Part shown: positions 13,270 to 59,947 of the stretch, one piece after another | Numbering within the stretch: the first letter of the stretch is position 1 | How the letters are laid out: every line of letters starts with the position of its first letter | DNA from: Diplolepis rosae | Taxonomy: Eukaryota > Arthropoda > Insecta > Hymenoptera > Diplolepididae | Direction: 5' to 3' | NCBI GenBank assembly: GCA_030998225.1 | Contig: JAPYXD010000744.1 | Location: forward strand, 806,001-870,000 | DNA length: 64,000 bases | Translations under genes and position numbers: made by a program | The notes under the pieces: generated by a model | Database searches by the model: none | What the model saw: only the letters and a program-made list of their open reading frames with translations | Told to the model about the DNA's origin: nothing

Positions 13270-13273
13270 GATA
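13270..13273. repeat. First GATA of the retroelement array
   Basis: This GATA is the left border of solo LTR D. The same tetranucleotide recurs at each later boundary: 14887-14890 (D/A), 34950-34953 (A/B), 50531-50534 (B/C) and 59944-59947 (right border of C). Each is directly followed or preceded by a TGTNACG or CGTNACA-type LTR end (CATCACA for D), so each is the 4-bp target duplication of the flanking elements. Confidence 0.8.
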
Positions 13274-14886
13274 TGTCACGTCCGTGGTTGACAGGCGCGC
13301 GCTGACGCTGCCTAATTGGCGAACGCGAGAACTCACTTTGTTTAAAAAATTCCGCGGGTACTTGCCTTTGGTCGCCTATGAGGATAGGTTTTCGGGCTTT
13401 ACAGAAAATATATTATAAAAAATTAATACACTCTTAATTCGTTATTGAATTAATGTCTTTGGACATTTATTTAAATGAATAAACACACTTTAATGGATAC
13501 AATTAAACGGGAACTCAACGTATTATTTTATAAGATTATTATAAAAGTTTTCAGTGACCGGCGCTAATTTCTTCTACGAGAAGAAGAAAGTTATCATACT
13601 GTAAACTGAATACCAACTACTGACTTAGCCAAAAAGTGGAGGCGCGATTTCGGAACCTCAAGATTGAAATCCCCTCTCTATAAAGAATAAAAATTAGAAA
13701 TGAAAAAGTTGGGGATGGTCCTTAACCAATGAGGGTGTTTTACAGTGACTTAGTATGCATGATTTTTATAGTCTGTCTGCCAATGAAAATCTCGTTGAGT
13801 TCGTGACATTTCTATGTTCTCACAGACCCCACATGGTCCATTTCACTAACCCTCTGGCCCAACGTTCCGAGAACTCGCATCCATGTGCACTTGAGAAAGG
13901 TCGTAAAAGTGCAGTTTTCTTGATTGATCTACGATTTCTAGGTTTCTAGTCTATAGATCTTGAACTGTGTTTAGACTTTTATTAAAATATTAAATCAAAC
14001 ATAACGAGTTTCTACAAGTTCTCTTGTTTTGGAGTTCTTGGTCCAAAGTTGTTACCAAAATATTTTATGGTCAAATAGTATACGTATTGCTCTTATGCTC
14101 TGAAAGAGGCCTTTGAATTTCTTTAAGAGAATAAAGAAATGCATTCAAAATTCTAATTTCACATCAAACTTTATGTTGTTTCAGATAATAAAATAGTGTT
14201 CTGGTTTTTAGGGATTTTCAGAATTGGAATAATTATTATTTCTCAAATTGGTTCAAAGAGTTCTGTTTAATATCAAAATAGGTTTATTATTTAGAATCGA
14301 CTGTTTTTAAGTGTTCTCAAAATATAACCTTCTTGGAGAAAAGCTTGATTGAAGTAGTATTAATAAATTGGTTTTATATGAATTGGAGTCCTATTTGTTT
14401 TATAATTTATCATTGAATAAAAGTCTACAGTTTCAAGATCTGGTTTCAATCCCTTTTCCACTAAAATCTAAATTAGTTTATAAAAAGTACATGATTTGTA
14501 GAGAATATTTCTTGTAGACCTGTTTAATAAATCTTAAATTAATTTCTTATTCTTAATTTGTATAAAGAATTTAGTAAAATAAATTCTTTTATAAGTACAT
14601 GATTTGTAGCGGGCATTTCTTGAAGATCTGAAAAGTAAATATTAAAATAATAGCATAACATATTCTAAAAGCGAATATATTTCTCTTTTCTCTCAAGCAG
14701 GAATTTAATCTAACCTTCTCTGCATATGAAATAAGATTTCGAGTAATTAAACAATTATACAATAAGAGTTGTGATTAAAGTTCACCCGTTATTAATTGAA
14801 GGGAACAAAGAGTTCTGCATTACCAACCGTTAGGTTTAAGGTAGTTCGCGAATTCACAGATGAGCGCACCAGGTGCGATCATCACA
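13274..14886 (-). mobile_element. Solo LTR D (Gypsy-type)
   Basis: The sequence begins TGTCACGTCC and ends GATCATCACA. It is flanked by GATA on both sides, with no internal coding region. The end words match the scheme of the LTRs of A, B and C in the same orientation, so I call it a solo LTR on the minus strand. At 1613 bp it is longer than the others and may contain small insertions. No second LTR copy is present to prove the call. Confidence 0.62.
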
Positions 14887-14890
14887 GATA

Positions 14891-15509
14891 TGTAACGCGC
14901 AGGTCAAATATCGCGCGCGAAACAGTTAAAATTCAAACACTTATTTAAATTTAATGGACCGAACTTCGTTTCAAAACAAAGAACTAGGAAGTCCAACTCT
15001 CGCGAATGAACCGACTTCTCTTTTTAGTTTTAATCTTAAAGTGGAAACAATAATATTTATTATCGTACTTTAAATAAAACACAATTATTTAGATGTCTAT
15101 GAATTTCTTCTCCACTTAAGGACTTTTCTATGAAAAGTCTCTAAGAAGAGAAAGTTTTTCAATAATTTTTACAGGGTTCTGGATTCAAGATGTTCTTAAG
15201 AAAAACTAAGGAATTTATATTTTCTTTTGTATATCCAGTAAGTTTCGACTCATACCTAAATCTAAAATATCCTATGCAAGTAAAATGTAAGATTTGAGAA
15301 AAATGAATATAAGAATATAAATGAATATATGATACATGTAAGATAAATTTAGGAAATACATTTAAACATAATAGGTATGTATTTGGGACGAGATCATCAT
15401 TCTTCAAAATTTAAAATTGTCGATTTGCCAATATCGCTAGCCAATTCTCTCCCTATTCTATTCCAAACTCGTATAAAATGAGCAGCGGAAGGATTCTGCG
15501 CTCGTTACA
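14891..15509 (-). repeat. 3' LTR of element A
   Basis: It begins TGTAACGCGCAGG and ends CGCTCGTTACA. Compared with the 5' LTR (33780-34949) it lacks a 504-bp block (present there at 33980-34483) and about 70 bp just before TATAAAA near the end. It also has a small duplication near 15300-15320. It matches well elsewhere. Confidence 0.88.
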
Positions 15510-15558
15510 CTTCTCCCCTTAAAAGAAAAGTCGCTTTCATAAAGCGGCTTTTTCAAAT
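15510..15558 (-). promoter_or_regulatory. Polypurine tract and adjacent hairpin of A
   Basis: Read on the minus strand, a purine run AAGGGGAGAAG abuts the 3' LTR. It is preceded by a hairpin whose arms are AAAGTCGCTTT and AAAGCGGCTTT with a CAT loop (plus-strand words). The same arrangement is found in B, C and E. Confidence 0.7.
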
Positions 15559-16051
15559 CTCGAGATGTTATACGGGTTTATTCTAAACGACAAAGTGTGT
15601 GTCAAGTGAACCTGCCAAACATCTGTAAGGGTCGGCTATACACCTGCTCTACTTCCATACCTAACGCAGGTAGGTCCCTTTAAACTTGGCCTGCTATAGT
15701 AACACGGTTCCTTCGACTTTCTTAGCTTTCTAGTAGGTTATTAGTTTGTTACTTAAGCCTATTTTACTTTCTATACTTTCCTGAAACATAACATACTAAT
15801 TATTCGATTACTTTTCTATCTATGTTAAAATCATTATTTGACTAAATTCGTATCCTAATGAATGGTTATAACACGTATAGTAAATCGAGTTGGGTTAAAA
15901 TAATACTTTGCTTATTTTATTCGGTTCCTAGACTCGATAAATGTATAGGTATATTAATTTACTTCATATTTCCAATATTCGCTCGTTTACTTATCGGTGT
16001 TAATATTAATGAATCTGTCGATATATATATATAAAATAACATATACATATA

Positions 16052-16135
<84 letters not shown>

Positions 16136-16247
16136 AAATAACATATATATATATATATGTATGTATATGTTATTTTATCCTAATTTTATTCAAACATTTG
16201 CAATATATATACTATTATTATTTCCAGGATTATTTTGTATGTATATT
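15559..16247 (-). other. 3' untranslated region of A
   Basis: This is non-coding sequence between the polypurine tract and the insertion point of LTR G. The last four bases (TATT, 16244-16247) are the left copy of the target duplication of G. No gene is seen. Confidence 0.6.
16017..16170. repeat. AT/ACAT microsatellite
   Basis: About 150 bp of (TA)n are interrupted by CATA and AAAATAACATA words. Tyr/Ile-rich open frames on both strands here are artefacts of the repeat. Confidence 0.85.
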
Positions 16248-17092
16248 TGTAACATCCCTACTTTACCCCTGGTTGCCAGACGCTTCAGTCAGCCAGGGTT
16301 CGGTAGGAGTAGGGGAGTAGGGTATGTAATAAACGAAACGGATTTTAAATATTAAAATACATATATATAATTTATTTAGATAAAGAACTAATACAAATGC
16401 AAATAAGAAAAATGCAATAATTTATGAAATAATTTAGTTTTAACGGTGTGTATGTGTAAATGTGGATAACAAAAATATCAAATGGTGTGCCGGTGTCAGT
16501 TTCTGAGTTTACTGTGTACGTGTTTTGTGTGTGTGCGTGTGTGTGGTGTGATTGTCGTGGATGCGTCGTTGGACCGGTTTTGCGTAGCACAATCTTATTT
16601 TCCTGTAAGTAAAACACACACGGTCGTAGGCGTTAAGAATCGGCGATTTACAATTTGATTGTCGTAGCCCGATTCGCCTCGGGGGGCGCGCTCACCTCGA
16701 TCTCTCATCCGGTAGTTCGTTTCGTCGGTCACGGTCAAGTCTCGGTCGTTTTAGGGAGGGGCGCCCTCAGCGGTATCTGAGCGTTGGCGCCCCACCCTCG
16801 GTGCCTCGGCCATGGCGGTATCCAGAGGGCCAAGAGTACTGATGGGTCGGTGGGTCGGTAATTCCCCAGTTTGAGCCCGGTCACCGGTATTTGATGGGTC
16901 CCAATCCTGGGCGGGGCCTCGGCCATGGCAGGATCCAGAGGGCCAAGGGTACTAGTGTGTCGGTTGGTCGATATGTTTGTCCGGGGAGAAGGTTAGGTTC
17001 ACGTGGCCCCGGTGAGAACCGGGCAAGACGTGAATCAGGGGTGCCTGATGTCACGCACGGCCTCCTCGCCCGGGATGTCTGTGCGAGGGTCA

Positions 17093-17521
17093 GTCAGGGG
17101 AACCTGACGCTGAGCCCTCCCACATGTCGAAAACCGGCCATGGGGGAACCCATCGGTCGGTGTTCGGCTCGGCATTTCCGGGTGAACGGTAGGTGTCGAC
17201 CTGGCCAGCCTGAGTAGCACCCAGTCAGGGGAACCTGACGCTGGGTGCCAGCTCTCACCGAGAGTCGACCATGGGGGAACCCATCGATCGACGCTCGATG
17301 TGGCCGGAACAGGAGGATCGTTGTGGGGGAGGTTTCGGCGTCACGTCTCTGTCGGTCGCCACCTGGCTTTGCCTGGAGCAACACCCAGTCAGGGGAACCT
17401 GACGCTGGGTGTCCGCTCCCACCGAGAGTCGACCATGGGGGAACCCATCGATCGATGCTCGGTCCGGCTTCACCAGGTGTCGTGGTCGGGGTCGGAGATA
17501 CCCTCCTATGGGGGAACCCAT
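17093..17521. repeat. GC-rich array of GGAA-loop hairpins
   Basis: Two perfect hairpins alternate: GTCAGGGGAACCTGAC at 17093, 17224 and 17388, and ATGGGGGAACCCAT at 17140, 17271, 17434 and 17508. Spacings are 131 then 163-164 bp, so they sit in tandem units of about 131-164 bp. On the plus strand every loop is GGAA, a GNRA-type tetraloop. The block is strongly GC-rich inside AT-rich DNA. Long open frames on both strands here come from base composition and repeats and do not match known proteins by eye. Confidence 0.78.
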
Positions 17522-17877
17522 CAGGAGAGGCATCTCCATGCCGTCCGTCTAGAGCGCCGCTCCAGTGTGACCCAGATCGTCGCTCCAGCTAAACCAGGCC
17601 GTGCAAACCTAATGGAAAGGTGGTGGACCGTTAGCAACTAGCGCCGCGTACAGCACTGCGCATGAACTACCATTATGTGTGCACGTGTTAGTGCATATAC
17701 ATGCATACGTAGGTTCTTTAAATGTGTTACAAAGAATATATTCAAATAAAATTAAAAGGAAATTGAAGATTTAGCGCAAAATTGTGAAAATTTAATTCAA
17801 GAGTGAGAAGTTATGTTGATATCAACTCACTCTTTAATTACATTTACACAATTTTGCCTTAAATCATGGTTTTCTCG

Positions 17878-18070
17878 TCATAAATAAAAATCAAAAATAT
17901 CTGTAATTTGTATTTTTATTTTCAGAAAATATAGTTGCTTAGCACATTTTGCGTTGATTTTTGTACTACAAGATAATCGAACACTTTGTGGGGTCGAGAT
18001 AGCTCTTTTCGGTGTTGTGTGAAAGTCTTCTCCAAATACATTCTTGCTGCTTCCTGCTTCTGGGATATCT
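17878..18070 (-). pseudogene. Possible second exon of the THAP gene
   Basis: On the minus strand an open frame of about 60 codons follows a possible acceptor (AATCAG at about 18070) and ends at a TGA at 17878-17880. Its first half is Ser/Thr/Pro-rich and basic, like the linker that follows THAP domains. The last part is Lys/Ile-rich and may already be intron read-through. The mariner-like element at 18340-19351 would lie in the intron between this exon and the THAP exon. It is supported only by position, frame and composition. Confidence 0.33.
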
Positions 18071-18339
18071 TCTGATTATTTTTTCTGGAATCTAGATTAA
18101 AAGCATTTAATTTATATGAATATTTGAAATTTATTTCGTAGGTATTTCATAAAATAAATAAAAATAAATTTTATAAAATAAAACTCCAGTCACATGTTTT
18201 GCGAAATTGTGGTGGGAATTTCTGACGTTGTGGAATTTGTATTGGTAATTCTCAGCTTTTTTTTCATAAATAATCCTTTGTAATTTTATACTATATATGT
18301 ACTTGCATCTATATCTTCAGTAACATTTAGACAGAAGTA

Positions 18340-19351
18340 CACTGCCGGTCGAAATTATTCGTTCACTTGTTGTTTCAGCTATTCCTAAAGTGTCTTAATT
18401 TTTATAATAATAAGTTGAAATTTTTTTCCCTATCATAAAATAAAAGTTAATAAAATTCTGCAAATAACAAATAAAACAAAATAAAAAATAATAAAATAAA
18501 CTAAATAACAAAATTGAAGAAATTTTTTTTTTCACAGAAAAATTTCTTCAATTTATATTGGAGAATACGATTTAGTTTTAAATAACGTTGGATTAATTCT
18601 AAATCAGAGGTTGATAAGGTCGATATAGTAGAGTTCCGTTGTCACGTACAGTGATACACTCTTCTAATGATCGACATAATCGACTAAAATGATTTGGAAA
18701 AATCAGAAAAAATAACAAAATGTTAATTTTATAAAAAAATATTTCAAAAAACTTGAAATTTCAATCATTCTGAAAAATATTAACAACTCTGAAATTAATT
18801 AAGATTTTTAAAAGTTTTTTGTCTCATTTAAATGGTAGGTTTTCATAGTATTTTGCTAACTAATCAAGATATTTTCAGATTTTTTTCCTGGATTCTACCC
18901 GGCGTCAAAAATGACACAAAAAGGTCATAAAATTTTAAAAATGTGTAGCTACTTACAAGAAATTTTTAAAAACCAATGTGTATCATATTTTAATAAAATT
19001 TATAGATTACTTTCTTCATTTGAAAACTTTCGACATGTTTGTACTATGTTTGACCCCAGGGTAGAATCCGAAAGAAAAATTCTAAAAATATCTTTTTACG
19101 TTAACAAAATACTATAAAGAGTAACCTTCAAAATGAGACCAGAAACGTTTAAAGGTCTTAATTAATTTCAGTGTTATTAATATTTATTCAAAAAGATAGA
19201 AATTTGACGTTTTTTGCAATATATTCTTATAAAATTATCATTTTGCCTTCAACTTGGGCTCAGTAGATGCAAAATTTAAATAATTATAAAAATTAAGACA
19301 CTTTAAGAATAGCTAACACAGCAGGTGAATAAATAATTTTGACCGGTAGTG
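18340..19351. mobile_element. Mariner/Tc1-like non-autonomous element M1
   Basis: Inverted ends of about 70 bp (CACTGCCGGTCGAAATTATT on the left; inverted right end CACTACCGGTCAAAATTATT) are flanked by TA at 18338-18339 and 19352-19353. An inner inverted pair contains GATTCTACCC at about 18890 and GGGTAGAATC at about 19060. There is no D,D-type transposase, and the only open stretch (18911-19117) is AT-rich and unconvincing. The element lies within the THAP locus intron. Confidence 0.78.
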
Positions 19352-19651
19352 TATATACTACTCTTTTAGTTTGGTATCTCAAAATTACGTGCTAGAATTT
19401 TATTGTCATTCCTAAGGAAGTTTTAGATACTTCATCGAAGTTTCTTGTACTATTTTATGTAAATTTTCTTACGATTTTTACATTTTTTCACATTTTCAAA
19501 GTTTACTTCGAAATAGGGCTCATATATGTAATATTTTATTTATTGCACTTAAAATTTTAGAAATAAAGATCACTAATGAGGACTCTGCTCAGAGTCGAAA
19601 AGTTTGAAATTATATACAATATCGTATGAAATTAAAAATATTGTTACTTAC

Positions 19652-20024
19652 GTGTGCAAACTGCACGCTACTTTCTTCAAAGTCTCGTGTGCCTTCTGCA
19701 GGTTTTTCTATTTTGGGAATAAAAATTTCGAAGTCTGATGGGGAAGAAACACTCGCCGGTTTAATGTTCACATCACTTCCACTCGACACATCACTACACG
19801 ACGGTAAATTTAACGTTGGAAAAATGTCGATGACAAATAAAAAATTGTCTTTCTAGTACTTCGAGATATCCTAACCTCGACAAGTAGGGATTTGAACATG
19901 CTCCTATCCACCGTTTTCCGGCATTTTCTTTCTTCGGAAACCGATGAATTGACACATTGTTCTTCCGACCCCTTGTGGAGGTACACCCACTCACAGCACA
20001 CTGAATTTCGTACATCGAATTCAT
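19652..20024 (-). pseudogene. THAP zinc-finger exon (broken)
   Basis: The minus-strand start at 20024 encodes a THAP-type C2CH DNA-binding domain. A Cys pair (C9 and C14) is followed by FP, a conserved Trp at residue 39, then CXXH and HF at the end of the finger, with Phe and Val/Lys after it. Such domains occur in P-element transposases and in domesticated THAP proteins. The frame stops at 19797, but a second frame from about 19815 to 19652 continues as a Ser/Pro/Glu-rich linker. It ends at a good splice donor (GTAAGT on the minus strand, intron from 19651). One small indel therefore seems to separate domain and linker. The upstream sequence to about 20130 is GC-richer and could be its promoter. 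No catalytic transposase region is visible. Confidence 0.68.
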
Positions 20025-20396
20025 TTTAAATGATTATAAAGCGCGATCGCGTACGAATTGTTGATACATGTATACAACAATGGCGGAACTCATACGAAGC
20101 CATTCCCTTTGCTGCACTCCGCCCGCTTCCGACTACTAGCGCCGCGTACACCACCGCACATGAACTATCCTACGGGGACACCCAATACATTAGAGGTCGA
20201 CCTGCCCTGAGCTGAACTGCCGCGTCTCGGTGTTCCGACCCTCCTTATATACCGTTCGCGAAGGGTGGGGGTAGCTGCGCGCGCGGCTCGGCGGCCGGTG
20301 GGGGTACTCACGTGAGTCGCGCTGGTGGGAGCACCCCTCCGAACGCCGCGGGAGGGGTGCGGTGGCGTAGCACGCGTATACGATTCGTTACATATT

Positions 20397-20637
20397 TATC
20401 ATCATTGCTATTGTCTTTATTTTTATTTATGTGTTCATTATTATCTTTATGATCACTACTTTTATTGGTCTGTTTGTTTATATTTTTATTTGTTTTTTTA
20501 TTATTGTTGCTGTCGTTATTACTATTATTATTAATTATTTTTATAATGTCTCCTATATTACTACATTTTATTTTGAATATCGAATGTGATAGTTAGTAGA
20601 CTTTATCTCTGTAATCGTTTTAGCAATTTTTTGAAAT
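20397..20637 (-). other. 3' untranslated region of A, right part
   Basis: TTTATTATTG-rich sequence lies between LTR G and the end of the integrase frame of A. No gene is seen. Confidence 0.55.
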
Positions 20638-21123
20638 TTAAACTAGCTTATTGAATATGTTTCGAGTTTTCGAGATGAGAAATTTGTAAAATTTTTGTTT
20701 TTGTTTTTGTTTTGTTTTTGTTTTGCTTCGGTGAGTTAAAATATATCGTAAAAAGGCATGTTTAACTCTATTGACATGCACAATTTTTCTGACTGTTGGA
20801 GTCATTTGCAATTCAATGTTTAATTCATCGATTACTTTAGTAATTTTAAAAGGTCCTAGATAGTGATCTTCGAATTTATTATCTCTAACATCACTTAAGA
20901 CATAAACGTATTGATTTATTTCGAAAACTCGTTCATTAATTTTTCTATCATAGTGCTTTTTGCAGCGTCTTTTAGCAGCCTCCAAACGAACAAAAGCAAG
21001 TGACTCGGTTTCTACTATTCTATTCAGAATTCTAGGTACCTCCTCGTCTGCAAATTCTGTAGGAAATCGAACCTTCCTTCCGAAAACTATTTCGTGAGGA
21101 GTCATGCCGGTTGATTCGTGCAC
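20638..21123 (-). pseudogene. Element A integrase, C-terminal part
   Basis: This frame corresponds to the end of the integrase core and the C-terminal module. It begins with HESTGMTPHE, the region after the catalytic Glu in B and E, then a basic helical stretch. A GPF-type motif (residues 91-93, YLGPFKI) follows, typical of the Gypsy GPY/F module. The tail is Lys/Gln-rich. It is disconnected from the core by a frameshift near 21110. B and E carry the same segment in an intact integrase frame. Confidence 0.82.
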
Positions 21124-21347
21124 CGAAGTATTAAAAGAGAAAAGTGCGTACGGAAGCCATTGGTCCCAGTTACTTCGCTCGCAATAATTACGAAAGTGTG
21201 GTGACTTCGTTCTAAAGCTCCTAGTGATTGAGGATGATACGCACTAGAACGATACTGACGAATTTTAAATAATGCCGCAAAACTATTCATAATTTGACTC
21301 ATAAATTTGTGAACCTTGATCGGTTTGTATGGCTTCCGGACATCCAA
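21102..21347 (-). pseudogene. Element A integrase core fragment
   Basis: It contains the segment with HPQSLGALERSHH, which includes the catalytic Glu, and the preceding helix. The first catalytic Asp and the HHCC zinc finger are missing. The neighbouring frame near 21340 still shows the TDQGSQ region around the second Asp. Frameshifts at both ends prevent translation as one protein. Confidence 0.75.
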
Positions 21348-21745
21348 AAATACAAATAAGGTTTTCTTTTCCTATTAATGCTCGCATTTTTCCCTCCCTT
21401 ATCGCCAGGCCATAGCCGACACTGATGGTAGATGCCATTCGTTCCACCCTTACAACCCTTGCCTAACTTCGACTCTCGATCGTTGAGTTGAATGACCTTG
21501 GGTGTGACGCAAGAGCATGACCCGAAATTCACATTACCACATTTGTCTGACTCGACCTGATAGGGTAACTTTTGATCAGAAATGGGCTGGGGTGATAAGC
21601 TTCGAGTTTGACATTCATCCTCACTAGTAAGGATTTTCTCATTTTCAATTAATTCGTTAACCAACCTGTTCTCATTCATCCCATTATTTGTATCAAAGTC
21701 TCCACAATTTTCATCATTCGAGCATTTATTTACACTTACAATCAC
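21299..21745 (-). pseudogene. Element A pol linker with internal deletion
   Basis: This is an acidic, Asn/Glu/Ser-rich stretch corresponding to the linker between RNase H and integrase in B, C and E. Unlike them it runs directly into frameshifted integrase-core sequence. The extra macro-like domain, the HHCC finger and the start of the core have been lost by deletion. Confidence 0.62.
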
Positions 21746-22026
21746 ACTATCAAAATCTCCATTCTCGCAGTAGTACTAAAAACTCTCTCTATGGGATACT
21801 CAGGATAAAGAACATTGCTTCCACTGAAACAAACACTTTCAGAATTTTCCTTAGTTTTGTTTTCATCATTCACTTCCCCTGATCGCCTTTTATTTTTAGA
21901 ATCATTCAACTCCATAGGATTACGAGACAGTGCATCCGCATTAGCATTCACCTTACCTGGTTTAAATGTAATTTTATAATCGTACCCTTGCAATTTTATT
22001 TTCCAGCGAGCTAAGCGAGAACCCAT
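21742..22026 (-). pseudogene. Element A RNase H C-terminal end
   Basis: It starts at MGSRLARWK, then GYDYKITFKPGK and NANADALSRNP, the conserved C-terminal end of Gypsy RNase H just before the linker. It is in frame with the larger RT/RNase H fragment but separated from it by an in-frame stop near 22050. Confidence 0.85.
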
Positions 22027-22050
22027 TGTGGGATCTTTTAATTGGTCTAG

Positions 22051-22908
22051 TCAGATTAGAGAACGATGATCTGGAATTAAAGAAAACTTTTGCCCGTACA
22101 CGTAAAGTCTGAAATGTTTTAATGCAAATATAATCGCTAGGAGTTCCTTTTCTGTCGTATTATAATTTATTTCCGCTTGGCTAAGTGTACGAGAGGCAAA
22201 CGCGATTGGCAAGTCTTCCCCGATAGCGCCCTGACTGAGAATCGCACCTAAAGCATAGTCGGATGCGTCAGTTGTAATTATGAAAGGTTTTGTAAAGTCT
22301 GGGTACTGTAAGATAGGCTTTGAACAAAGAATGTTTTTTAATTTGTTGAAAGCCATCTGTGCGGTTGCAGTCCAAGTAAATGGTACATTTTTCATTAAAA
22401 GTACAGTCATAGGCTTCGCGATAGACGCAAAATCAGGTATAAACCGGCGATAATATCCAGCTAAGCCTAAAAACTGTTTAACGTTTTTTCGGCCTTTTGG
22501 ACAAGGAAATTTGCTAACGGCTTCTATCTTTTTCGGATCTGGTTTCACTCCTACTTCAGAAATCACGTGTCCTAAATACCCTATTTCTTTACATGAAAAT
22601 CTACATTTATCTGGTTGAAGCACAAGCCCTGCTGTTTTTAAACGCCCTAAAAGATTCTCTAATTTTTCGTTATGCTCTTTCAATGATTTCGCGTAGATGA
22701 CTATATCATCCATGTATACGAACATTTCTATACCTTGTAAACCAGTAAGCACGCGATCCATAAGTCTTTGGAACGTTGCAGGCACGTTCTGTAATCCAAA
22801 AGGCATTCGATTGAATTGGTAGTGACCAAAGGGTGTAGAGAAGGCCGTTTTATGCCTATCAGCAGGCTCGACTTCAATCTGATGAAAACCAGAAGCAAGA
22901 TCGAGCAC
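22051..22908 (-). pseudogene. Element A reverse transcriptase/RNase H fragment
   Basis: This covers RT from LDLASGFHQ to the end and most of RNase H. The RT catalytic YMDD is at residues 64-67, FLGLAGYYRRF follows, and the RNase H first Asp lies in TTDASD. The frame stops where B has a Trp codon after DHRPLI (here DHRSLI then TGA). It begins just after a stop (TAA at about 22917) that replaces a Tyr codon. Upstream RT sequence continues in the same frame to about 23090. The copy therefore carries at least two nonsense mutations. Confidence 0.88.
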
Positions 22909-23399: not shown

Positions 23400-23580
23400 C
23401 CCAGATAACAATCGTGCGAGGCACGTTACCCGCACGGCATGCGAGAAACACTGTGCGTGCGTGGTGCGGTACATATGCGTCGCTTTTTGTGGCAGACACG
23501 CACGTGCGAGGCATATGTGTCGCATAATGTGAGAGGCACACTATGTGCCAGCGTGCGAGGCATATGTCTCGCACTTTGTA
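23400..23580. repeat. Subterminal GTGCGAGGCA repeats
   Basis: GTGCGAGGCA occurs at least three times (about 23413, 23504, 23546), with related palindromic variants such as CATATGTCTCGCAC between them. The region is GC-richer than its surroundings and mirrors the TGCGTGCG-rich right end of the same element. Such subterminal arrays usually bind the transposase. Confidence 0.55.
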
Positions 23581-50530: not shown

Positions 50531-50534
50531 GATA

Positions 50535-51584
50535 TGTCACGCGCCGAATCAGTTTAAGCGCGAACTGTCGGTAAATTTAAATTTGTAATACACAAATTTA
50601 AATCCGGATATAAGTTCTCCACGTTAAAGAGTGGAAACTCACCTCACCACGAGCAAAGTGTATTTCAACGAACACAATAAAAGTGCATAAATACAAAAAC
50701 TATAATATTGTGAAAGGAATGGGAAAAGAAACGGAGACCGATTTTAATTCAATTTGAACGGTATTTAAACTTCGATTTATTTAACTGTTGTACACAGTGA
50801 CTGACTCCTTTACGGTGCTCGGATGTCAGTCGCTCAAACATTAATGAATTTTCTCTGACCATGATGCTTAACCCCTGCTTGTCTAGGCGCGCGGGTAGTT
50901 TTTCGTACGAGTTGATCTTCGTCGCTGTTCGGATGTTTTCGGAGGCGATCTCTTGATTCCCAGATAAAATGAGGCCCCTTTTCCTTCCGACTGCTGGCGG
51001 AAGGTATCGAAGCGAAAAAACCCCGAACTCGGGTTTTGAACGGTCGAGAGGCCCTGAGCCACATGGTCGACAGGCGAAGGCAATAAAGTTTAATAAAGGG
51101 CTTAACAGTAAAATACATTTCTCTTTTACTGTCAGGGACAGTTATTGAGTATCCTATAATCGCGTTTTAAGACGGCTTGAGAAACTCGCATTTACTTTAT
51201 GTATATAAAACACAACTTGCTTTAATGTTAAGGTTTTCTTTCTAAGTTCCAGGTTTTACAATTTTTGAACATCTGTTGCTTATTGCTATCCACTTTTGTG
51301 ACACATCTGCGATTCTATGTTCGTTATAAATCTAGGTACAAATAGATATAGAAAGGTCGTCATTGTTATAAAATTATCATGCTTCATTCGAATTCAATAT
51401 ACGTTTCTTAATGTCGAATCGCTCTTATTCTATGCCAATCTCATTACATAATATTCTAAATAATTAATTTCTAGGGTGTTTCTAAACTATCTTGTCTACC
51501 TTTGTTGTTTGATTTTTAATCTTGCTTTGAACATTTCGCGCGCGGATCGAGACGCCTCTAGCGTCGAAATCGGCTATCGTTACA
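50535..51584 (-). repeat. 3' LTR of element C
   Basis: It begins TGTCACGCGCCGAATC and ends CTATCGTTACA. It has the same length as the 5' copy with about ten substitutions. An open frame of about 94 codons on the minus strand (50834-51118) is present in both LTRs only because they are near-identical. Confidence 0.94.
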
Positions 51585-51630
51585 CCTCTCCCCTTAGAAA
51601 AAAGGTCGCTTCTTGGGAACGGCCTTTTTT
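51585..51630 (-). promoter_or_regulatory. Polypurine tract and adjacent hairpin of C
   Basis: On the minus strand CTAAGGGGAGAGG abuts the LTR. A hairpin with AAAAAAGGTCGCTTC and GAACGGCCTTTTTT arms lies beside it. Confidence 0.72.
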
Positions 51631-52144
51631 AACTTTATTTACGATTATGCCGATTTGACATAAACATTCATTTGTAGATAATATCATCAGATGTTTAGTG
51701 CAAGTGTACATTTAATTAATACTCAATCGTCCATATGAAGTAATGTGGAGATAGGGCATTACTGTGGTAAGTATTTATCTGTTTATTGTAACCAAATAGT
51801 GTAATATCGATAATTATTTCTATTAAGATTCACACTTTCATACTCCAAAATCAAGACGTGATTAAAAGGTTAAGCTGGTCAAAATATACAAGCTCTTAAA
51901 TCTATGTGTTATGATCATATTTTTATATTCTAATAAGGTTTATTTTTTGTTCAATATTTCTTATAACTGAATTGATGATGTGTGGTACCAACTGTACTAA
52001 TTTTCTAATTTGATGGGCCTATTACTATCTGATCTTAATATGAATACTTGTATACACGTATACTTTTTCCCTTTGTGTTCCCTATGGTTTAGGTGCATAA
52101 GTGATGTCTACAAGTTTGATCGAAATTCGGAGGCGAGTGGGGTA
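51631..52144 (-). other. 3' untranslated region of C
   Basis: This is AT-rich sequence between the truncated pol and the polypurine tract. I looked for integrase motifs (HHCC, DDE, GPY/F) and found none. Confidence 0.65.
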
Positions 52145-55100
52145 TCAGCCGATGAGAAAGCTATCGGATTTTACATTCTTGGACTCTATCGTATCTAGCC
52201 CGTTTCCGATCCTTGATACGCTAAACGTTTTTAAACTCATTGTTTCGACGGCTTCTCGTAGGGTCGACACGGCTAGTTCTATATTTTTGGCAAATTGTTT
52301 AGCGTCGTAAGTTTCTTTGACAAATAGATTGAAAATTAATCGTTTTTTATCTTTTACAGATGTGACTAATCCAATCTGAGCGTTTTCTTCACGGATATCG
52401 GACGGCTTGATCGACAAATTATCTATCAATTCACGACCCACTAGAGTGCTTAACACGCCGTCGCAGGACACAAAATTTATCAAGTTTTCGTTACGGAGAA
52501 ATAGTTTGTCGTTACTAAACGTGAACAAAGGGGTAAGTATACAATTTCCTTCTTTATTTCTTGCGCTCAGAATGGGTATCGCTTCTACAGATCCGCAATC
52601 CTCGGTTTGTTTGCATTTGGTTGACACCGGGCAGTCACGTGCAACTTTTGAATCTTTTATTACTTGCCCCCAAACTCCCAACATTATATTATTATTCTCC
52701 CTCACGCAATTTTCATTACAGCTTTCTTCGGGCCGATTCGTAGTGGGTTTAGTAGTCTCTCTCTGTGGTTGATCATTCCACGCACTCTCTCTCTCTAAGT
52801 CTCTTGGAGGGGGATCCTCCCTCCCGTCACTGACCCGTCCGGCACAGTCCTGAGTCTCGAGGATATGAGGTTCAGTAACTGGTACCTCAATCCTGTCACT
52901 GACCTTCTCTACCAGTTTCTCTCTCTTTCTTCCTGGCAGAGTCCGGTGGTAGATATCAGTTTTGACTATCTTCACCCCTCTTGCCATCTTAGCCTTCTTG
53001 CTCGCTACCACCTCAAGGTCCAACCCAAGTGCCACCTCATGCTCTCGCGGTAGAGAAGGCTGAGTACCCGGATTCCGTAGGACGCGGCCTGCGCGCCCCG
53101 TACAACCAGCACTGTCATGGCCTAGCCCTTCCACGATTGCCGCAGCACCTTCAAGGGTTCGCAAACCTTGAGAGGTCTTTTGCCTTTGAGAGAGACCTAC
53201 TTGCCCTTCCGGTAAGGTTCTCGTCAGAACACAACTCTCTACCAGAGTTCCGGACTCTACTTCTTCCTCACTTGATTCTTCATCGGTCCCGAAGTTGCTC
53301 TCTGTTTCACTGCAAAATCCATTCCCTGTAAATGGAAAAACTTTTTCTATAGGGTACTCGTGAAATATTGTATCACTAGTGGAGAACACGTTCGCAGTTA
53401 GCGGGTCGCTTTGATCCGTAACTGGCGTGCTCTCACTTTCATCCGCTCCTACTGAATTTGACACTAACACCGGATTCCTGGAGAGCGCATCTGCATTAGC
53501 GTTTACCCTTCCTGGCTTGTATACTATCTCGTAGTCGTATTCCTGAAGTTTGATTTTCCATCTCGCTAGTCTAGATCCAACCGTAGGATCCTTTAAATTG
53601 CATAACCATATTAGTGGACGATGGTCTGTCACTAATTTAAACTTTTGACCGTAAATATAGGGACGAAACTGTTTAACTGCAAAAATGATCGCGTACAATT
53701 CTTTCTCGGTAGTGGTATAATTTAACTCCGCTTTTCCTAAAGTTGCGGATGTATAGGAAATCGGTAGGTCTTCCCCTATTGTTCCCTGACTTAATACGGC
53801 TCCTGCCGCGTAATTGGAAGCATCCGTTGTGATAATAAAGGATTGTTTAAAATTTGGATACTGTAATACCGGTTCAGAACATAGAATTTCTTTGAGTGTG
53901 TCGAACGCCTTTTGAGTTTCTTTAGTCCAAATAAACTGTGATTTTTTCTGTAATAAGTGGGTTAGTGGTTTGGCTATTGGTGAGAAGTTTGGTATGAAGC
54001 GCCTGTAATATCCGGCTAGACCTAAGAATTGTTTGACATTTTTACGACCTGTTGGCTTCGGAAATTTGTTAACAGCTTCTAATTTTTTAGGGTCTGGACT
54101 TACGCCTTCTTCGGATATTTTATGCCCTAGATAACCTATTTCCTTACATAAAAATCGGCACTTTTCCGGTTGTAAGACTAAGCCAGCAGTTTTTAAACGG
54201 CCGAGCAACCTTTCTAACTTCTGGTTATGCTCTTTCAAGGACTTAGCGTATATGACAATATCGTCCATATAGACAAAAAGTTCGATGCCTTGTAATCCCG
54301 AAAGAACTCTATCCATCAGTCTCTGAAAAGTAGCTGGGGCGTTTTTCAGACCGAATGGCATCCTTGTGAACTCGTAATGTCCAAAAGGTGTTGAGAATGC
54401 TGTTTTGTGTCGATCTTTGTGCTCGACTTCGATTTGGTGGAAGCCGGCAGCAAGATCTAGTATCGTGAAATATTTCGAACCCCCTAATTGGTCTAGTATG
54501 TCGGTTATGTTAGGGAGGGGATACGCGTCTCTTACAGTTTTCTCATTAAGCAGACGGTAATCGATCACCATCCGCCATCGCCGATTTCCTTGAGAGTCTG
54601 CCTTTTTCGGTACGACCCACACAGGTGAATTATACGGAGAATCGGATTCCTGTATTCTACCTTCTTCTAACAAAGCCTTCTCCTCCCCTTTTACAAATTC
54701 GCGTTGAATCATAGGTAATCTATGATTCGGTTTCCTAACTGGTTCTTCATTAATAGTATTAATAGTGTGTTTCACAATATTTGTGCATCCTAATCTGTCT
54801 CCGCTAATAAAAAACTGATAAGTAAATTTTTCAATAGTGTTGAGTAATTGTGTTTTTTCTTCGGAATTTAGATTCGTTAGATTTAATTCGGACACTAGTT
54901 TTTCGAATCGATCGCTATGTGGACTGAAAGGGTTTCCACTATTCGCGGCCTTTTTCTCTGTTCTAGGTGCAGGTTCGCCTAATTTAAATTCCTTTATTTC
55001 TACTGGCGGTACGGTTAACTCTACGTCACAGGTAGTGGTATTAATACAGTATACTTTGATTCTTCCGTTCGCGACCGATACTAAAGATTCACCCAAATAC

Positions 55101-55729
55101 ACTCCTGGTCCTGTAGGGATTAATGGCAAATATCCTTCTTTTAACTCGGGGTTCTTTACAGGTATAGTAATTAGTTGCTTTGTTCGGGCTTTTAATTTTA
55201 TATCTACACTCTTTTTTGCGTCTAATATCGAGAATGTACCTAGCTGATTCTGTATTTGTTTTGATTGCAGGTTTATTACTGAGTTGGATAGAAATGGCAT
55301 ACCCAACATACCATCTGATTCGACGGGAAAGCTATTGGAAACTATCTGAAAAGGAATCGCAGAATTGTTTATTCTTATCTGAACTTGTCCACGAGTACGA
55401 ACGCCTTTTTCATTGATACCCAATATATCGTATTTTATCCGACTATCGATGGGAGTATTTGTTTTTATACGTTTTTGTTCAATAAGATTTAATTCTGCCC
55501 CGGTGTTTATTATTAATCTTCCGCTACCATTTTTTAAGTCCTTGCTATTTATATCTATGCTAGGCGAATGTTTTTTATCCGCAGCTGTAAAATTCATGAT
55601 GACGCGTTTAAGAGGTGCGATTCCGTTAAAAAGCTCGTCGTTGCACCATACAGATGAGCTTGTTATTCGTTTAAATGAATTTTTTTTGAAGCGCGTGATT
55701 CTTCTTCCTTTTTCATACGTTTCCTGCAT
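52145..55729 (-). CDS. Element C pol, truncated in the macro-like domain
   Basis: This 1194-residue frame is in the -1 frame relative to gag and overlaps it by 67 bases. The protease site reads INTGAEL: residue 75 is Asn (codon AAC) where B, A and E have Asp, which should abolish proteolysis. RT has YMDD at 487-490. RNase H keeps D636, E677 and D702. The charged linker (about 750-1060) is followed by the first part of the macro-like domain (NFVSCDG, GLVTSVK, IFNLFVKE, SRIGNGLD). The frame then diverges after LDTIES and stops. The HHCC finger and integrase are absent. Pol could still copy RNA, but maturation and integration would need another element. Confidence 0.9.
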   Translation of the reverse strand: MQETYEKGRRITRFKKNSFKRITSSSVWCNDELFNGIAPLKRVIMNFTAADKKHSPSIDINSKDLKNGSGRLIINTGAELNLIEQKRIKTNTPIDSRIKYDILGINEKGVRTRGQVQIRINNSAIPFQIVSNSFPVESDGMLGMPFLSNSVINLQSKQIQNQLGTFSILDAKKSVDIKLKARTKQLITIPVKNPELKEGYLPLIPTGPGVYLGESLVSVANGRIKVYCINTTTCDVELTVPPVEIKEFKLGEPAPRTEKKAANSGNPFSPHSDRFEKLVSELNLTNLNSEEKTQLLNTIEKFTYQFFISGDRLGCTNIVKHTINTINEEPVRKPNHRLPMIQREFVKGEEKALLEEGRIQESDSPYNSPVWVVPKKADSQGNRRWRMVIDYRLLNEKTVRDAYPLPNITDILDQLGGSKYFTILDLAAGFHQIEVEHKDRHKTAFSTPFGHYEFTRMPFGLKNAPATFQRLMDRVLSGLQGIELFVYMDDIVIYAKSLKEHNQKLERLLGRLKTAGLVLQPEKCRFLCKEIGYLGHKISEEGVSPDPKKLEAVNKFPKPTGRKNVKQFLGLAGYYRRFIPNFSPIAKPLTHLLQKKSQFIWTKETQKAFDTLKEILCSEPVLQYPNFKQSFIITTDASNYAAGAVLSQGTIGEDLPISYTSATLGKAELNYTTTEKELYAIIFAVKQFRPYIYGQKFKLVTDHRPLIWLCNLKDPTVGSRLARWKIKLQEYDYEIVYKPGRVNANADALSRNPVLVSNSVGADESESTPVTDQSDPLTANVFSTSDTIFHEYPIEKVFPFTGNGFCSETESNFGTDEESSEEEVESGTLVESCVLTRTLPEGQVGLSQRQKTSQGLRTLEGAAAIVEGLGHDSAGCTGRAGRVLRNPGTQPSLPREHEVALGLDLEVVASKKAKMARGVKIVKTDIYHRTLPGRKREKLVEKVSDRIEVPVTEPHILETQDCAGRVSDGREDPPPRDLERESAWNDQPQRETTKPTTNRPEESCNENCVRENNNIMLGVWGQVIKDSKVARDCPVSTKCKQTEDCGSVEAIPILSARNKEGNCILTPLFTFSNDKLFLRNENLINFVSCDGVLSTLVGRELIDNLSIKPSDIREENAQIGLVTSVKDKKRLIFNLFVKETYDAKQFAKNIELAVSTLREAVETMSLKTFSVSRIGNGLDTIESKNVKSDSFLIG

Positions 55730-57159
55730 TCGTCATACGCGTGACCCCCCTTTTTACAATAACTGCATTCGTTTTTTCCTGTTCTAATGTGTCGCTTTAC
55801 AGTGCAATGTCTAGCAATATGCCCGGGTTTTTGACAGTTATAACATATAGGACTGTCAGATTTCGAGTGTGGGCATTCTCTCGCAAAATGTCCCGGTTTC
55901 CTACAAGCGTGGCAGATAATTTGTTCCTTTGCAGTCGTGCGTAAGCAACCTATAACTAAGTGGCCCTCTTCACCACATCCTTCACAAGCTCTGTTTATCA
56001 ACGGAATTTGTGAGTTATAATTATTAACGCCACGGTATCGATCCCTATCTCTATTATTGATATGATTGGACGTTTCGCTTGCAACTTGTCGAATTCTAGC
56101 TCCAGCGTGGTACGGACGAAATCTATTTTGTGGTCGAGTGTGATTTCCGAATTTATTTCCTATTTCTTTTGATGGCACGTCCTGAGATAATTTTCCTAAA
56201 TCTTTACGATCAAGAGTAGATTCACGTTCGATTTCCCACTCGGCAGTTCGACCTAAATTTATTGCTTCTTGTAATGTACCCGGATGCCCACCCCTGACTC
56301 TAACGGCTAACTCTCTTTTTAATCCCATTATAAAGTTATCTAAGGCGGTGTCGCGAGCAGACTTTATTAACGCCCTGGCATAATCTACAGAGTTCGTTTC
56401 CTCTACTAATTCGATTATATTTGTTAAAATTTCGCCTACTCTAGTTCCGTAGTCTAGAACCCTTTCACTTTCACGTTGTGCTACGTTCGCAAGCGTGTTA
56501 TTCAGCTGGGAGAGATTACGAGTTTCGGTAAACGTGATCTTAAGATGACGCAATAGATCCTCTAAGGAATGGATATCGCGATCCTGCAAAGTTGCGTAAG
56601 CTCTACCTTCTATTCTGGTCCGAATCATTAAGAATAGGTATTGTCGATCCTTAGCGGCAATCGAGTTTCGAGCGTATATACAGTCGTTGATAAATCGCGA
56701 GACTGGCAAATTATATCCGTCAAACGACTTCGGAATAAATTCGAGGGCTGCTCTAAATGGAATCGGATTCTCTGGCTCGTGTGGGGGTAGAGAAAACAGT
56801 CCTGATATACTGGTCGCGCCTGTTGATATGCTGCCCTCTCTACTCATATGCACTGGCGCTAAATGTAGTGCGGGGCTCTCTCGCGAGGTACTAGCTTCCG
56901 GAAGGTACATATTAGCGTGATTTTCTGAACTAAAACGAGTCGAGATTTCTTCGTTTCCTTCTGAGGCCCTCGGGATTTGCGTATTATCGGGCGATCGTAC
57001 GCGATTTGCAAGGGATCTGCCTATGACTCTACTACGTGATGTTGCAACTGGTGGATTTACTTCTACGATTTGTGAATTGGTTTCTGCTGCTCCACTGTTA
57101 ACCTTCCTTTTTGACCTTGTAGACACCCTCGCAGGCCTACCACGGGGTACTTTCGGCAT
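55663..57159 (-). CDS. Element C gag polyprotein
   Basis: This 498-residue gag is intact. It has a basic Arg/Ser-rich N-terminus, then a capsid-type domain from about 122 to 310 (NPIPFRAALEFIPKSFDG). The linker shared with B (NRFRPYHAGAR) leads to four CCHC knuckles at about 392-405, 416-429, 439-452 and 465-478. Its last codons contain a run of eight A (55680-55687 on the plus strand as T). Slippage by one base there moves ribosomes into pol a few codons before the gag stop. The start MPKVPRGRPAR is the first ATG after the leader. Confidence 0.92.
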   Translation of the reverse strand: MPKVPRGRPARVSTRSKRKVNSGAAETNSQIVEVNPPVATSRSRVIGRSLANRVRSPDNTQIPRASEGNEEISTRFSSENHANMYLPEASTSRESPALHLAPVHMSREGSISTGATSISGLFSLPPHEPENPIPFRAALEFIPKSFDGYNLPVSRFINDCIYARNSIAAKDRQYLFLMIRTRIEGRAYATLQDRDIHSLEDLLRHLKITFTETRNLSQLNNTLANVAQRESERVLDYGTRVGEILTNIIELVEETNSVDYARALIKSARDTALDNFIMGLKRELAVRVRGGHPGTLQEAINLGRTAEWEIERESTLDRKDLGKLSQDVPSKEIGNKFGNHTRPQNRFRPYHAGARIRQVASETSNHINNRDRDRYRGVNNYNSQIPLINRACEGCGEEGHLVIGCLRTTAKEQIICHACRKPGHFARECPHSKSDSPICYNCQKPGHIARHCTVKRHIRTGKNECSYCKKGGHAYDECRKRMKKEEESRASKKIHLNE

Positions 57160-58858
57160 TTTATAATTGGATTTAAATAAATAAAAATGAGGGTTATGAG
57201 AGCAAGAAAATTAAATTGGATTTGAATAAAGGAATAAGAATTATAAAGAAGGAAAATTTAAAGCGAACTATCTTATTTCGATAATGAACTCGTAAAAAGT
57301 GTGTTCAAGGTTAATACAATTCCCTTCCCACTTTTAACTTTATCCCATTAACACGTTATGTATAAAATTATTCAAACGTTTTCATTTATAAACATCTTCT
57401 GCTTCCCATACTTATATCGGAGAAAGTTTAAATATTGGATTTGGAGTAAATATATATTTGTTTTCTATCAAGTTCACGCTCGGAAGGTAGAGAAAGTGGG
57501 CAAAGTGAGAACTTATCAATTTTTAGAACGCTTTAAAGGAAAGTTTAAAGAATTTTGGGAAGTTTTGAGTTTTCACTTTTACAAAAACAATGTGGATTTT
57601 ACGACTTGCATATAATAATCCGTTACAGTCTTTTATCGTCTACCCTACAAAAGATCTAACAACCCCCCTTAATTGATTAAAACTACTTCCCTACTAGAGA
57701 AAAACTCTATTCGTCTTCTATCTATAATAGATTGATTGATAACTGTACACAGTTCGCGAGCATAAATTATCAAACGAAATTTCTGAACATAAAGTCCTAA
57801 ACGTAAATTTCTAAACATACATTTCTAAACCTAAATTTCTAGGAATAAATTTCTAAACATAAATTCTTAACACTAACTTCTAAAGATAGATTCCCAAACA
57901 TAAATTTCTAAGATAAATTCCCAAATATGAGTTTCTAACATAAATTTCTAAGCATACATTTTCAAACATGAATTTCGAATATAAATTTTCAAATTTGAAT
58001 TTCGAACATAGATTTTCGCCCTTCAAAGGTAGAGCTTTTGAGATTGGCAATTATTTAGAGCGAAACGACTTACGTTAGAAGGTCTGGAAGACGGACTGAC
58101 ATGCTTTACCACTCAATCACTTTCACTATTGGTATACTCTGCTTTTTGTTTTTCACTCTTTGCTACACTTTAAGCATGTCAATCTCTTCGGATAAGTGTC
58201 CTTTGCAGTCGTTCGTCCCTCTCTTCAGGATATCCTCGGGTATAGTCCCTCGATGGACCTGACAACGTTGGTAACACTCCTTTTTTTTTCTTGAGGGTGG
58301 TGGGGCCCACGTTGCTTCACAACCCCGGTTTTTTACCGGCTGAAATCACATAGGAAACCCACAAAAACCTAGGTGATGGTTGCGGTCGTTCTTATATGTG
58401 CGTTTGATTCACACTTCCTCTAACATCTCCTTTCCTTTCTCCTTTTCCGACCCGTTTCACGACCCTACTTAATTCAGCCCGCTACTAAGGATAGTACTCG
58501 AGAGAAAAGGGTTATCAGCAGCTTCCACTATGTTTCCGAGTCCTCAGTTCCTCCTGCGATGTCCGATGATCCTTAAGGTGGTCCTATATGGTTCTCTTAA
58601 AAACAAATCTTCGTTTCTGCTTTTTGAGCGACCGATGAGTTGTTTGAAATAAGCGTTCTTTTTCGTCGTCGACTACGCAAGTCATGAGCACTTTTATTCT
58701 TTTATATATATATATATATATATTTTTTTTTTAATCAGGAATTAATCATGAAATGTCTCACTGTTTTTTGCAAGTTTCACTGTAATTCACTACACATGTA
58801 TCCGTTTTTAGTTTCAAAGTTTTTACTTGTTTGTTGATTCACTCGCGGCGAGTTTGTG
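57160..58858 (-). other. Long 5' leader of element C
   Basis: About 1.7 kb of untranslated sequence lies between gag and the PBS. It includes a 17-bp-type minisatellite (57780-58018), a GGTGGTGGGGCCCAC patch at about 58295 and an (AT)n run near 58705. No gene is seen; the open frame at 57358-57615 is on the opposite strand and unrecognised. Confidence 0.65.
57780..58018. repeat. Minisatellite, unit about 17 bp
   Basis: About 14 degenerate copies of CTAAACATAAATTT-like units lie in tandem, grading from CTAAACATAAATTT to CAAACATGAATTTCGAA at the right. It sits in the leader of C. Confidence 0.75.
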
Positions 58859-58878
58859 GAATCCCACTTCTGACACCA
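58859..58878 (-). promoter_or_regulatory. tRNA-Leu primer-binding site of C
   Basis: The minus strand reads TGGTGTCAGAAGTGGGATTC, complementary over 20 bases to the 3' end of a tRNA-Leu of the type ending CTGACACCA. It is 15 bases from the LTR. The same site, split by insertions, is seen in A and B. Confidence 0.82.
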
Positions 58879-58893
58879 AAAAAAAAACTGTTC

Positions 58894-59943
58894 TGTCACG
58901 CGCCGAATCAGTTTAAGCGCGAACTGTCGGTAAATTTAAATTTGTAATACACAAATTTAAATCCGGATATAAGTTCTCCACGTTAAAGAGTGGAAACTTA
59001 CCTCACCACAAGCAAAGTATATTTCAATGAACACAATAAAAGTGCATAAATACAAAAACTATAATATTGTGAAAGGAATGGGAAAAGAAACGGAGACCGA
59101 TTTTAATTCAATTTGAACGGTACTTAAACTTCGATTTATTTAACTGTTGTACACAGTGACTGACTCCTTTACGGTGCTCGGATGTCAGTCGCTCAAACAT
59201 TAATGAATTTTCTCTGACCATGATGCTTAACCCCTGCTTGTCTAGGCGCGCGGGTAGTTTTTCGTACGAGTTGATCTTCGTCGCTGTTCGGATGTTTTCG
59301 GAGGCGATCTCTTAATTCCCAGATAAAATGAGGCCCCTTTTCCTTCCGACTGCTGGCGGAAGGTATCGAAGCGAAAAAACCCCGAACTCGGGTTTTGAAC
59401 GGTTGAGAGGCCCTGAGCCACATGGTCGACAGGCGAAGGCAATAAAGTTTAATAAAGGGCTTAACAGTAAAATACATTTCTCTTTTACTGTCAGGGACAG
59501 TTATTGAGTATCCTATAATCGCGTTTTAAGACGGGTTGAGAAACTCGCATTTACTTTATGTATATAAAACACAAATTGCTTTAATGTTAAGGTTTTCTTT
59601 CTAAGTTCCAGGTTTTACAATTTTTGAACATCTGTTGCTTATTGCTATCCACTTTTGTGACACATCTGCGATTCTATGTTCGTTATAAATCTAGGTACAA
59701 ATAGATATAGAAAGGTCGTCATTGTTATAAAATTATCATGCTTCATTCGAATTCAATATACGTTTCTTAATGTCGAATCGCTCTTATTCTATGCCAATCT
59801 CATTACATAATATTCTAAATAATTAGTTTCTAGGGTGTTTCTAAACTATCTTGTCTACCTTTGTTGTTTGATTTTTAATCTTGCTTTGAACATTTCGCGC
59901 GCGGATCGAGACGCCTCTAGCGTCGAAATCGGCTATCGTTACA
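58894..59943 (-). repeat. 5' LTR of element C
   Basis: It begins TGTCACGCGCCGAATC and ends CTATCGTTACA, followed by the last GATA of the array. See the 3' copy for the comparison. Confidence 0.94.
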
Positions 59944-59947
59944 GATA

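What the first reader, a model, noticed from the sequence alone, without database searches (positions are those of the whole stretch)
13270..59947. Four Gypsy-type units stacked end to end, each boundary exactly one GATA
Solo LTR D, element A, element B and element C follow one another in the same orientation. The only sequence between neighbouring LTR ends is GATA (14887, 34950, 50531), and GATA also flanks the outer ends (13270, 59944). A, B and C have clearly different LTRs, so unequal recombination of one element cannot make this. The simplest reading is repeated integration into the target duplication of an earlier element, with the same 4 bp and orientation each time. This implies a sequence-directed integrase or one attracted to LTR ends (TNACA-GATA-TGTNACG).
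Basis: partly seen in the sequence, partly recalled or inferred. Interest (0 to 1): 0.92.

Follow-up and report, generated by a model that had tools for sequence, protein, structure and literature searches.

The report
Retrotransposons stacking at an insulator-like motif
A family of jumping genes in this animal-like genome inserts at one exact distance from a short DNA word resembling the binding site of the insulator protein CTCF, and because each insertion leaves that word intact, copies can pile up end to end at the same spot.

Summary
In detail: four related LTR units (A, B and C are minus-sense Ty3/Gypsy elements, D a solo LTR) are separated and flanked by exactly one GATA.

GATA is not the target. 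LTR-4bp-LTR junctions recur genome-wide with locus-specific 4-mers (77 sites; reversed-pattern control 14). With a free spacer, 4 bp is found in 13 of 19 places from U3 tips and 8 of 15 from U5 tips.

Insertion sites share a 10-bp word, YAGAKGGCGC, in one orientation, ending 10 bp before the duplication. It is the best-scoring place in 22 of 24 collapsed sites (leave-one-out, P about 2e-35), and in phase in 7 of 31 further single flanks against 0-2 at other offsets. The window has it at 59958-59967, beside C. It fits the printed CTCF consensus CCASYAGRKGGCRS.

The word lies outside the duplication, so insertion regenerates the target; this explains stacks with one 4-mer. LTR tips do not score in phase.

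Pol also carries a TARG1-type macro domain before integrase, a possible tether to ADP-ribosylated CTCF. That step, and CTCF itself, are inferred. Against: B looks younger than C.

The parts
13270..13273 (.). GATA, left outer TSD copy
13274..14886 (.). Unit D, solo LTR (TGTCACG...ATCATCACA); orientation not determined
14887..14890 (.). GATA between D and A
14891..34949 (-). Element A; LTRs 14891-15509 and 33780-34949, 12 substitutions in 600 aligned columns; pol and gag in short ORFs
34950..34953 (.). GATA between A and B
34954..50530 (-). Element B; LTRs 34954-36107 and 49719-50530, 0 substitutions in 812 columns, one 342-column gap
37117..43207 (-). B coding region: gag ORF 41657-43207 (zinc knuckles), pol ORF 37932-41717 (RT, RNase H, macro-like domain, H2C2), integrase core ORF 37117-38010
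43343..48760 (+). Opposite-strand Gypsy relic N inside B: gag, RT/RNase H and integrase ORFs, PPT and LTR start near 48748; no 5' LTR seen
50531..50534 (.). GATA between B and C
50535..59943 (-). Element C; LTRs 50535-51584 and 58894-59943, 10 substitutions in 1050 columns; PBS TGGTGTCAGAAGTGGGATTC (tRNA-Leu, recalled)
59944..59947 (.). GATA, right outer TSD copy
59958..59967 (-). Phased target word TGGATGGCGC (read on minus strand), ending 10 bp from the TSD; CTCF-like

Best explanation
The window holds one target that was used four times by related LTR elements (A-C are Ty3/Gypsy) whose integration is position-specific. SHOWN: sampled insertion sites of this LTR group carry the word YAGAKGGCGC in one orientation, with its 3' end 10 bp from a 4-bp duplication whose own sequence is free. 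The word lies outside the duplicated bases, so after each insertion the same word still faces a fresh copy of the same 4 bp. INFERRED: later elements therefore integrate again at that place, which gives stacks of different family members separated by one and the same 4-mer (GATA here). INFERRED: the word is read by a host zinc-finger protein, most likely CTCF, which holds the intasome at a fixed distance, as TFIIIB does for yeast Ty3. SPECULATIVE: contact is made through the TARG1-type macro domain between RNase H and integrase, possibly by binding ADP-ribosylated CTCF.
For: Junctions recur with locus-specific 4-mers: 77 sites against 14 for the control; with free spacers, exactly 4 in 13 of 19 and 8 of 15 places (recount). 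Stacks whose two outer ends also carry the same 4-mer: L003 CATT, L008 TGGC, L012 GAGA and the window GATA; in 4 of these 4 the word is in phase on exactly one outer flank. Leave-one-out: 22 of 24 collapsed sites peak at the fixed place, P about 2e-35; over all 32 sites, 30 have it on one side, 0 on both, 2 on neither (matrix not left-out). The rule was seen by eye in L036-L085; of collapsed sites read afterwards, 8 of 9 obey it. Hold-out single flanks: 7 of 31 in phase, at most 2 at any of 40 other offsets. LTR tips of the window are not in phase. The word fits CCASYAGRKGGCRS (printed human consensus, PMC6746451). Macro domain: profile E 1.6e-10 to human TARG1; TARG1 chains lead Foldseek.
Against: If only the word-side GATA were used, C (next to the word) should be the youngest unit; by LTR divergence B (0/812) looks younger than C (10/1050; Fisher P 0.0066). 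That needs LTR gene conversion in B, or occasional use of an inner GATA; neither is shown. Two of 24 sites (L044, L101) do not peak in phase. Of 7 stacks with only one presumed outer flank seen, 3 show the word on that flank and 4 do not. Independence is imperfect: L055/L074 are two sites in one host repeat, L085/L099 look related, and of the 7 hold-out hits L079 and L106 lie in host sequence related to training sites. CTCF binding in this organism is not shown, and the consensus used is human. The macro-domain model is weak (mean pLDDT 58.6). Empty targets and a second LTR subfamily could not be searched (service busy).
Confidence: 0.82

Rival explanations
1. The integrase is drawn to LTR tips (or to tip-4bp-tip junctions) and inserts next to any resident relative.
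For: 13 of 143 U3 ends abut another LTR at 4 bp; B appears younger than C although it lies between A and C; one insertion 4 bp beyond a tip has the tip's CGGC in phase (L094/L129).
Against: Insertions without an LTR neighbour carry the phased word; the window's tips score -11.5 to +0.6 in phase; the spacer of 8 expected from a tip's CGGC occurs in 1 of 15 places, spacer 4 in 8 of 15.
Confidence: 0.15
2. The integrase prefers GATA itself as target.
For: Five GATAs in this stack.
Against: 24 collapsed sites show 23 different 4-mers, GATA once; other junctions have TTTT, GTGG, AGCA, CTAG, CATT, TGGC.
Confidence: 0.01
3. The 4 bp are not target duplications but spacer bases of two-LTR circles, or the stack is made by unequal recombination or segmental duplication.
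For: Tandem LTR structures made in one insertion are described in plants (PMC11899658, passages).
Against: Bases next to the LTRs on the PBS and PPT sides (GG/GA/GA and AG/AG/GG for A/B/C) would not give GATA or locus-specific 4-mers; A, B and C have different LTRs; the same 4-mer is also at both outer ends.
Confidence: 0.02
4. The word is read by the element's own integrase, or by another host zinc-finger protein, not by CTCF.
For: No binding data exist here; the fixed phase would also fit direct DNA reading by the intasome.
Against: A 10-base fit to a printed CTCF consensus and one fixed orientation relative to the cut; the Pfam scan of Pol showed only usual retroelement domains.
Confidence: 0.4
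5. Assembly artefact.
For: Repeats are prone to misjoins; junctions were not checked in reads.
Against: The 4-bp spacer recurs on many contigs when the spacer is left free: 11 of 17 sites, 8 of 15 places.
Confidence: 0.02

Closest known systems
Ty3 of Saccharomyces cerevisiae
   Same: Ty3/Gypsy element that integrates in a window of 2-3 bp next to a host DNA-bound complex, TFIIIB (PMC8632968, abstract and passages); that the tRNA gene stays a target afterwards is recalled.
   Different: Ty3 makes 5-bp duplications at Pol III genes and is positioned by an integrase chromodomain (same passages); here 4-bp duplications, a CTCF-like word, and a macro domain upstream of integrase.
Plant tandem LTR retrotransposon structures (TLI)
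   Same: Tandem LTR elements at one site, flanked by a TSD (PMC11899658, passages).
   Different: There LTRs and internal regions alternate without inner TSDs and the array is read as one insertion.
Nested plant LTR retrotransposons
   Same: Non-random insertion into older relatives (PMC6911290, passages).
   Different: LTRs are reported there as not commonly targeted and the motifs as weak; the passages seen show no fixed-distance word.
TARG1/OARD1 macro domain (human C6orf130)
   Same: Profile match E 1.6e-10 over 94 positions; B and C keep the residues aligned with TARG1 K84 and D125 (numbering and catalytic role recalled).
   Different: Built into a Gypsy Pol between RNase H and integrase; the glycine-rich loop (recalled for TARG1) is changed; N has R in place of K.

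Membership tests
Ty3/Gypsy (Metaviridae) LTR retrotransposon | Order RT - RNase H - integrase, with zinc-knuckle Gag | tested here: met
   (elements A-C; A in pieces; in C the integrase itself was not scanned)
Ty3/Gypsy (Metaviridae) LTR retrotransposon | LTRs TG...CA, PBS, PPT, short TSD | tested here: met
   4-bp TSD
Named Gypsy clade (such as mdg3 or Mag) | Position in an RT tree with named members | not tested
   protein database switched off; tRNA-Leu PBS is only a recalled hint
Position-specific LTR retrotransposon (works like Ty3) | Fixed base-pair distance to a host sequence | tested here: met
   22 of 24 collapsed sites; hold-out 7 of 31 against 0-2
Position-specific LTR retrotransposon (works like Ty3) | Tether between integrase and a host DNA-bound protein | not testable with these tools
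   needs binding assays
CTCF-directed integration | Target word fits the CTCF consensus | tested here: met
   YAGAKGGCGC against YAGRKGGCRS of the human consensus CCASYAGRKGGCRS
CTCF-directed integration | CTCF occupies the sites | not testable with these tools
   no ChIP data for this genome
TARG1-type macro domain | Sequence and fold similarity | tested here: met
   E 1.6e-10; TARG1 top ranks, but E 0.018 at best on a weak model; Pfam gave no macro hit
TARG1-type macro domain | Binding of ADP-ribose | not testable with these tools
   two positions recalled as catalytic are kept in B and C; loop changed
GATA-specific integrase | GATA enriched among TSDs | tested here: not met
   1 of 24 collapsed sites

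The most novel reading that the evidence does not exclude
An animal Gypsy lineage has captured a TARG1-type macro domain next to its integrase and uses it to dock on ADP-ribosylated CTCF at insulator sites. It cuts 10 bp downstream of the CTCF core and thereby turns insulators into self-renewing landing pads on which retrotransposons stack.
Probability: 0.25. Interest if true: 0.96.

Novelty: new variant of a known kind. Interest (0 to 1): 0.86.

Why it matters
Base-pair-precise targeting by an LTR retrotransposon is the hallmark of Ty3 at Pol III genes (PMC8632968). A comparable system at CTCF-like sites in what looks like an animal genome would link retrotransposon integration to insulators and 3D genome structure, give a natural tether for study, and explain how clean tandem LTR stacks arise without recombination. 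The macro domain beside the integrase offers a concrete, testable tether. It also yields a practical rule: a stack with one repeated 4-mer marks a regenerating target, so order and age of insertions can be read from it.

Tried and rejected
GATA specificity: rejected by the TSD list. LTR-tip attraction as the main rule: rejected by phase scores and the rarity of spacer 8. Two-LTR-circle spacer: rejected from the bases beside PBS and PPT. RNA-gene target such as a tRNA: no Rfam match at gathering score and no tRNA in the window. I first thought C's LTR differences were clustered in 300 bases, which would have removed the age conflict; one search shows they are spread, so the conflict stands (my notebook entry still says clustered). 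I thought the LTR itself carried a perfect CTCF site; by eye it is one base short, so I dropped it. A relative of the B integrase in IMG/VR: 5 pattern matches, none confirmed. Papers: searches; for prior reports of CTCF-directed or macro-domain Gypsy integration I judged from the listings (one search listed 12 of 114) and from passages of two hits; none seen. This covers only the open library, and most of these papers were not opened.
Full report
1. Observation. D is a solo LTR whose orientation was not determined. A, B and C are Ty3/Gypsy elements with LTR pairs found by self-comparison, PPT AGGGGAGRRG and PBS TGGTGTC in minus-sense order, and gag and pol domains by Pfam. LTR divergence: A 12/600, B 0/812, C 10/1050.

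2. It recurs. The window lies in an unnamed 757.7-Mb assembly of 428 contigs. The tip-4bp-tip pattern CGTNACANNNNTGTNACG has 77 sites, each seen from both strands; the pattern read backwards has 14. Only the first places are printed there. The 4-mer differs between loci but repeats inside clusters: AGCA/TGCT at four junctions on C305, TTTT twice on C316, GTGG twice on C211. This pattern fixes the spacer, so the spacer was then left free. With B/C-type U3 tips and a spacer of 0-30, 19 places were found (17 sites, two of them head-to-head and seen from both strands); the spacer is 4 in 13 of 19, and 12, 5, 3, 11, 10 and 0 once each (control 0). From U5 tips it is 4 in 8 of 15 places (two are this window), 8 in one, and 2, 11, 11, 13, 22, 23 in the rest (recounted; control 1). 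There are 143 such U3 ends in all (control 1).

3. What the sites share. I read the outer side of 90 of the 143 U3 ends (30 loci, 20, 20, 20); 21 are internal 3' LTRs and 4 are stack-like. By eye, L036-L085 showed a word at a fixed distance. One search then fetched 20 opposite flanks, 15 of them chosen because the known flank had no such word; 11 of the 20 gave an LTR end with a matching TSD (up to one mismatch) and 9 did not. This choice raises the count of U5-side words but cannot move the phase. 33 sites with both flanks were compiled, among them this window and two stacks; L050 was dropped (its right flank is internal), L071's left flank was replaced by the outer flank of its stack, and 8 sites in host repeats already represented were collapsed, leaving 24. 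With a leave-one-out weight matrix the best place over about 97 positions per site is the fixed one in 22 of 24. Misses: L044 and L101. The window site scores 13.6 bits with its own sequence left out. The word is on the U5 side in 18 and on the U3 side in 4 of the 22. Over all 32 sites, 30 have it on one side, none on both, 2 on neither. In 31 collapsed single flanks outside the matrix, 7 score 5 bits or more in phase; the other 40 offsets sum to 8, at most 2 each. Two of the 7 (L079, L106) lie in host sequence related to training sites L105 and L075, and among the 24 L055/L074 sit in one host repeat and L085/L099 look related, so the P value overstates independence.

4. Why stacks form. The word is outside the duplicated bases, so each insertion leaves 4-mer plus word as before. 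Of stacks with both outer ends in view (L003, L008, L012, window), 4 of 4 have the word in phase on exactly one side. Of 7 stacks with one presumed outer flank in view, 3 have it there (L007, L011, L023) and 4 do not (L009, L019, L025, L027), as one would expect of a one-sided mark but also no proof. The same host targets are hit on different contigs by elements with different U3 variants, for example CCAC followed by TTTTGTGAAATTCTC (one base changed in L037 and in L051) in L037, L051, L056, L059 and L097. In the window the word is right of C at 59958-59967.

5. What does not fit. B should be older than C if only the word-side copy is used, yet B's LTRs are identical (Fisher P 0.0066). Gene conversion in B or rare use of an inner GATA are possible; neither is shown. 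Insertion L094/L129, 4 bp beyond an LTR tip with the tip's CGGC in phase, suggests a tip can serve as the word now and then.

6. Reader of the word. The matrix consensus YAGAKGGCGC fits YAGRKGGCRS of the human CTCF consensus CCASYAGRKGGCRS, printed in a figure legend of PMC6746451 (passages seen). That insect CTCF shares this core is recalled. The cut is on the 3' side of the core in the 22 sites. Poly(ADP-ribosyl)ation is reported to mark insulator-bound CTCF (review PMC9442299, passage seen). In B 498 residues lie between the Pfam matches to RNase H and H2C2; in C the ORF runs on for 463 residues after RNase H; in N the stretch spans two ORFs. Its last 150 residues match human TARG1: single sequence E 0.0036, three-row profile E 1.6e-10. 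Pfam did not find it. A model from three rows has mean pLDDT 58.6 and pTM 0.60; Foldseek's top four are TARG1 chains, E 0.018-0.025, none below 0.001. The docking idea is therefore a hypothesis.

7. Comparison. It works like Ty3 (fixed distance to a DNA-bound host factor; PMC8632968, abstract and passages) and belongs to Ty3/Gypsy, but its clade was not placed because the protein database was off. The plant tandem structures of PMC11899658 differ (no inner TSD; passages). I saw no report of CTCF-phased integration in the listings, or of a macro domain in Gypsy Pol.

Noticed in passing
window 37932-41717 (minus), 52145-55732 (minus), 47029-48621 (plus): TARG1-type macro domain between RNase H and integrase in the Pol of B, C and N; preceded by a long poorly conserved stretch.
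   Followed up: partly
window 43343-48760: Opposite-strand Gypsy relic N lies inside B, divergent from B's gag across an AT repeat, with PPT and LTR start but no visible 5' LTR, although B's own LTRs are identical.
   Followed up: no
window 35523-35864: 342 bases present in B's left LTR and absent from the right one, with CAC at both edges; no other copy in the window.
   Followed up: partly
window about 13080-13262: MITE-like inverted repeat directly left of the stack (by eye); a related end sequence flanks insertion L099 on another contig.
   Followed up: no
G000 C305:204790-261667 (L021-L024): Four AGCA junctions within 57 kb and an AGCA outer end with the phased word: probably a longer stack than this window's, with units in both orientations; not read through.
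   Followed up: partly
L037, L051, L056, L059, L097; L075-L077, L106, L114; L047, L069, L078, L091; L042, L055; L052, L074: Recurrent host targets hit on different contigs, some in both orientations; nature of these host repeats unknown.
   Followed up: partly
L044, L101: Two insertions whose best motif match is not at the working phase.
   Followed up: no
window 4845-9601: Large inverted repeat of about 1.3 kb (88% identical) with inner direct and inverted copies.
   Followed up: no
window 29628-31645: Inverted repeat of about 550 bases (94% identical) inside element A; a 100-base piece next to it also occurs at 11208-11307.
   Followed up: no
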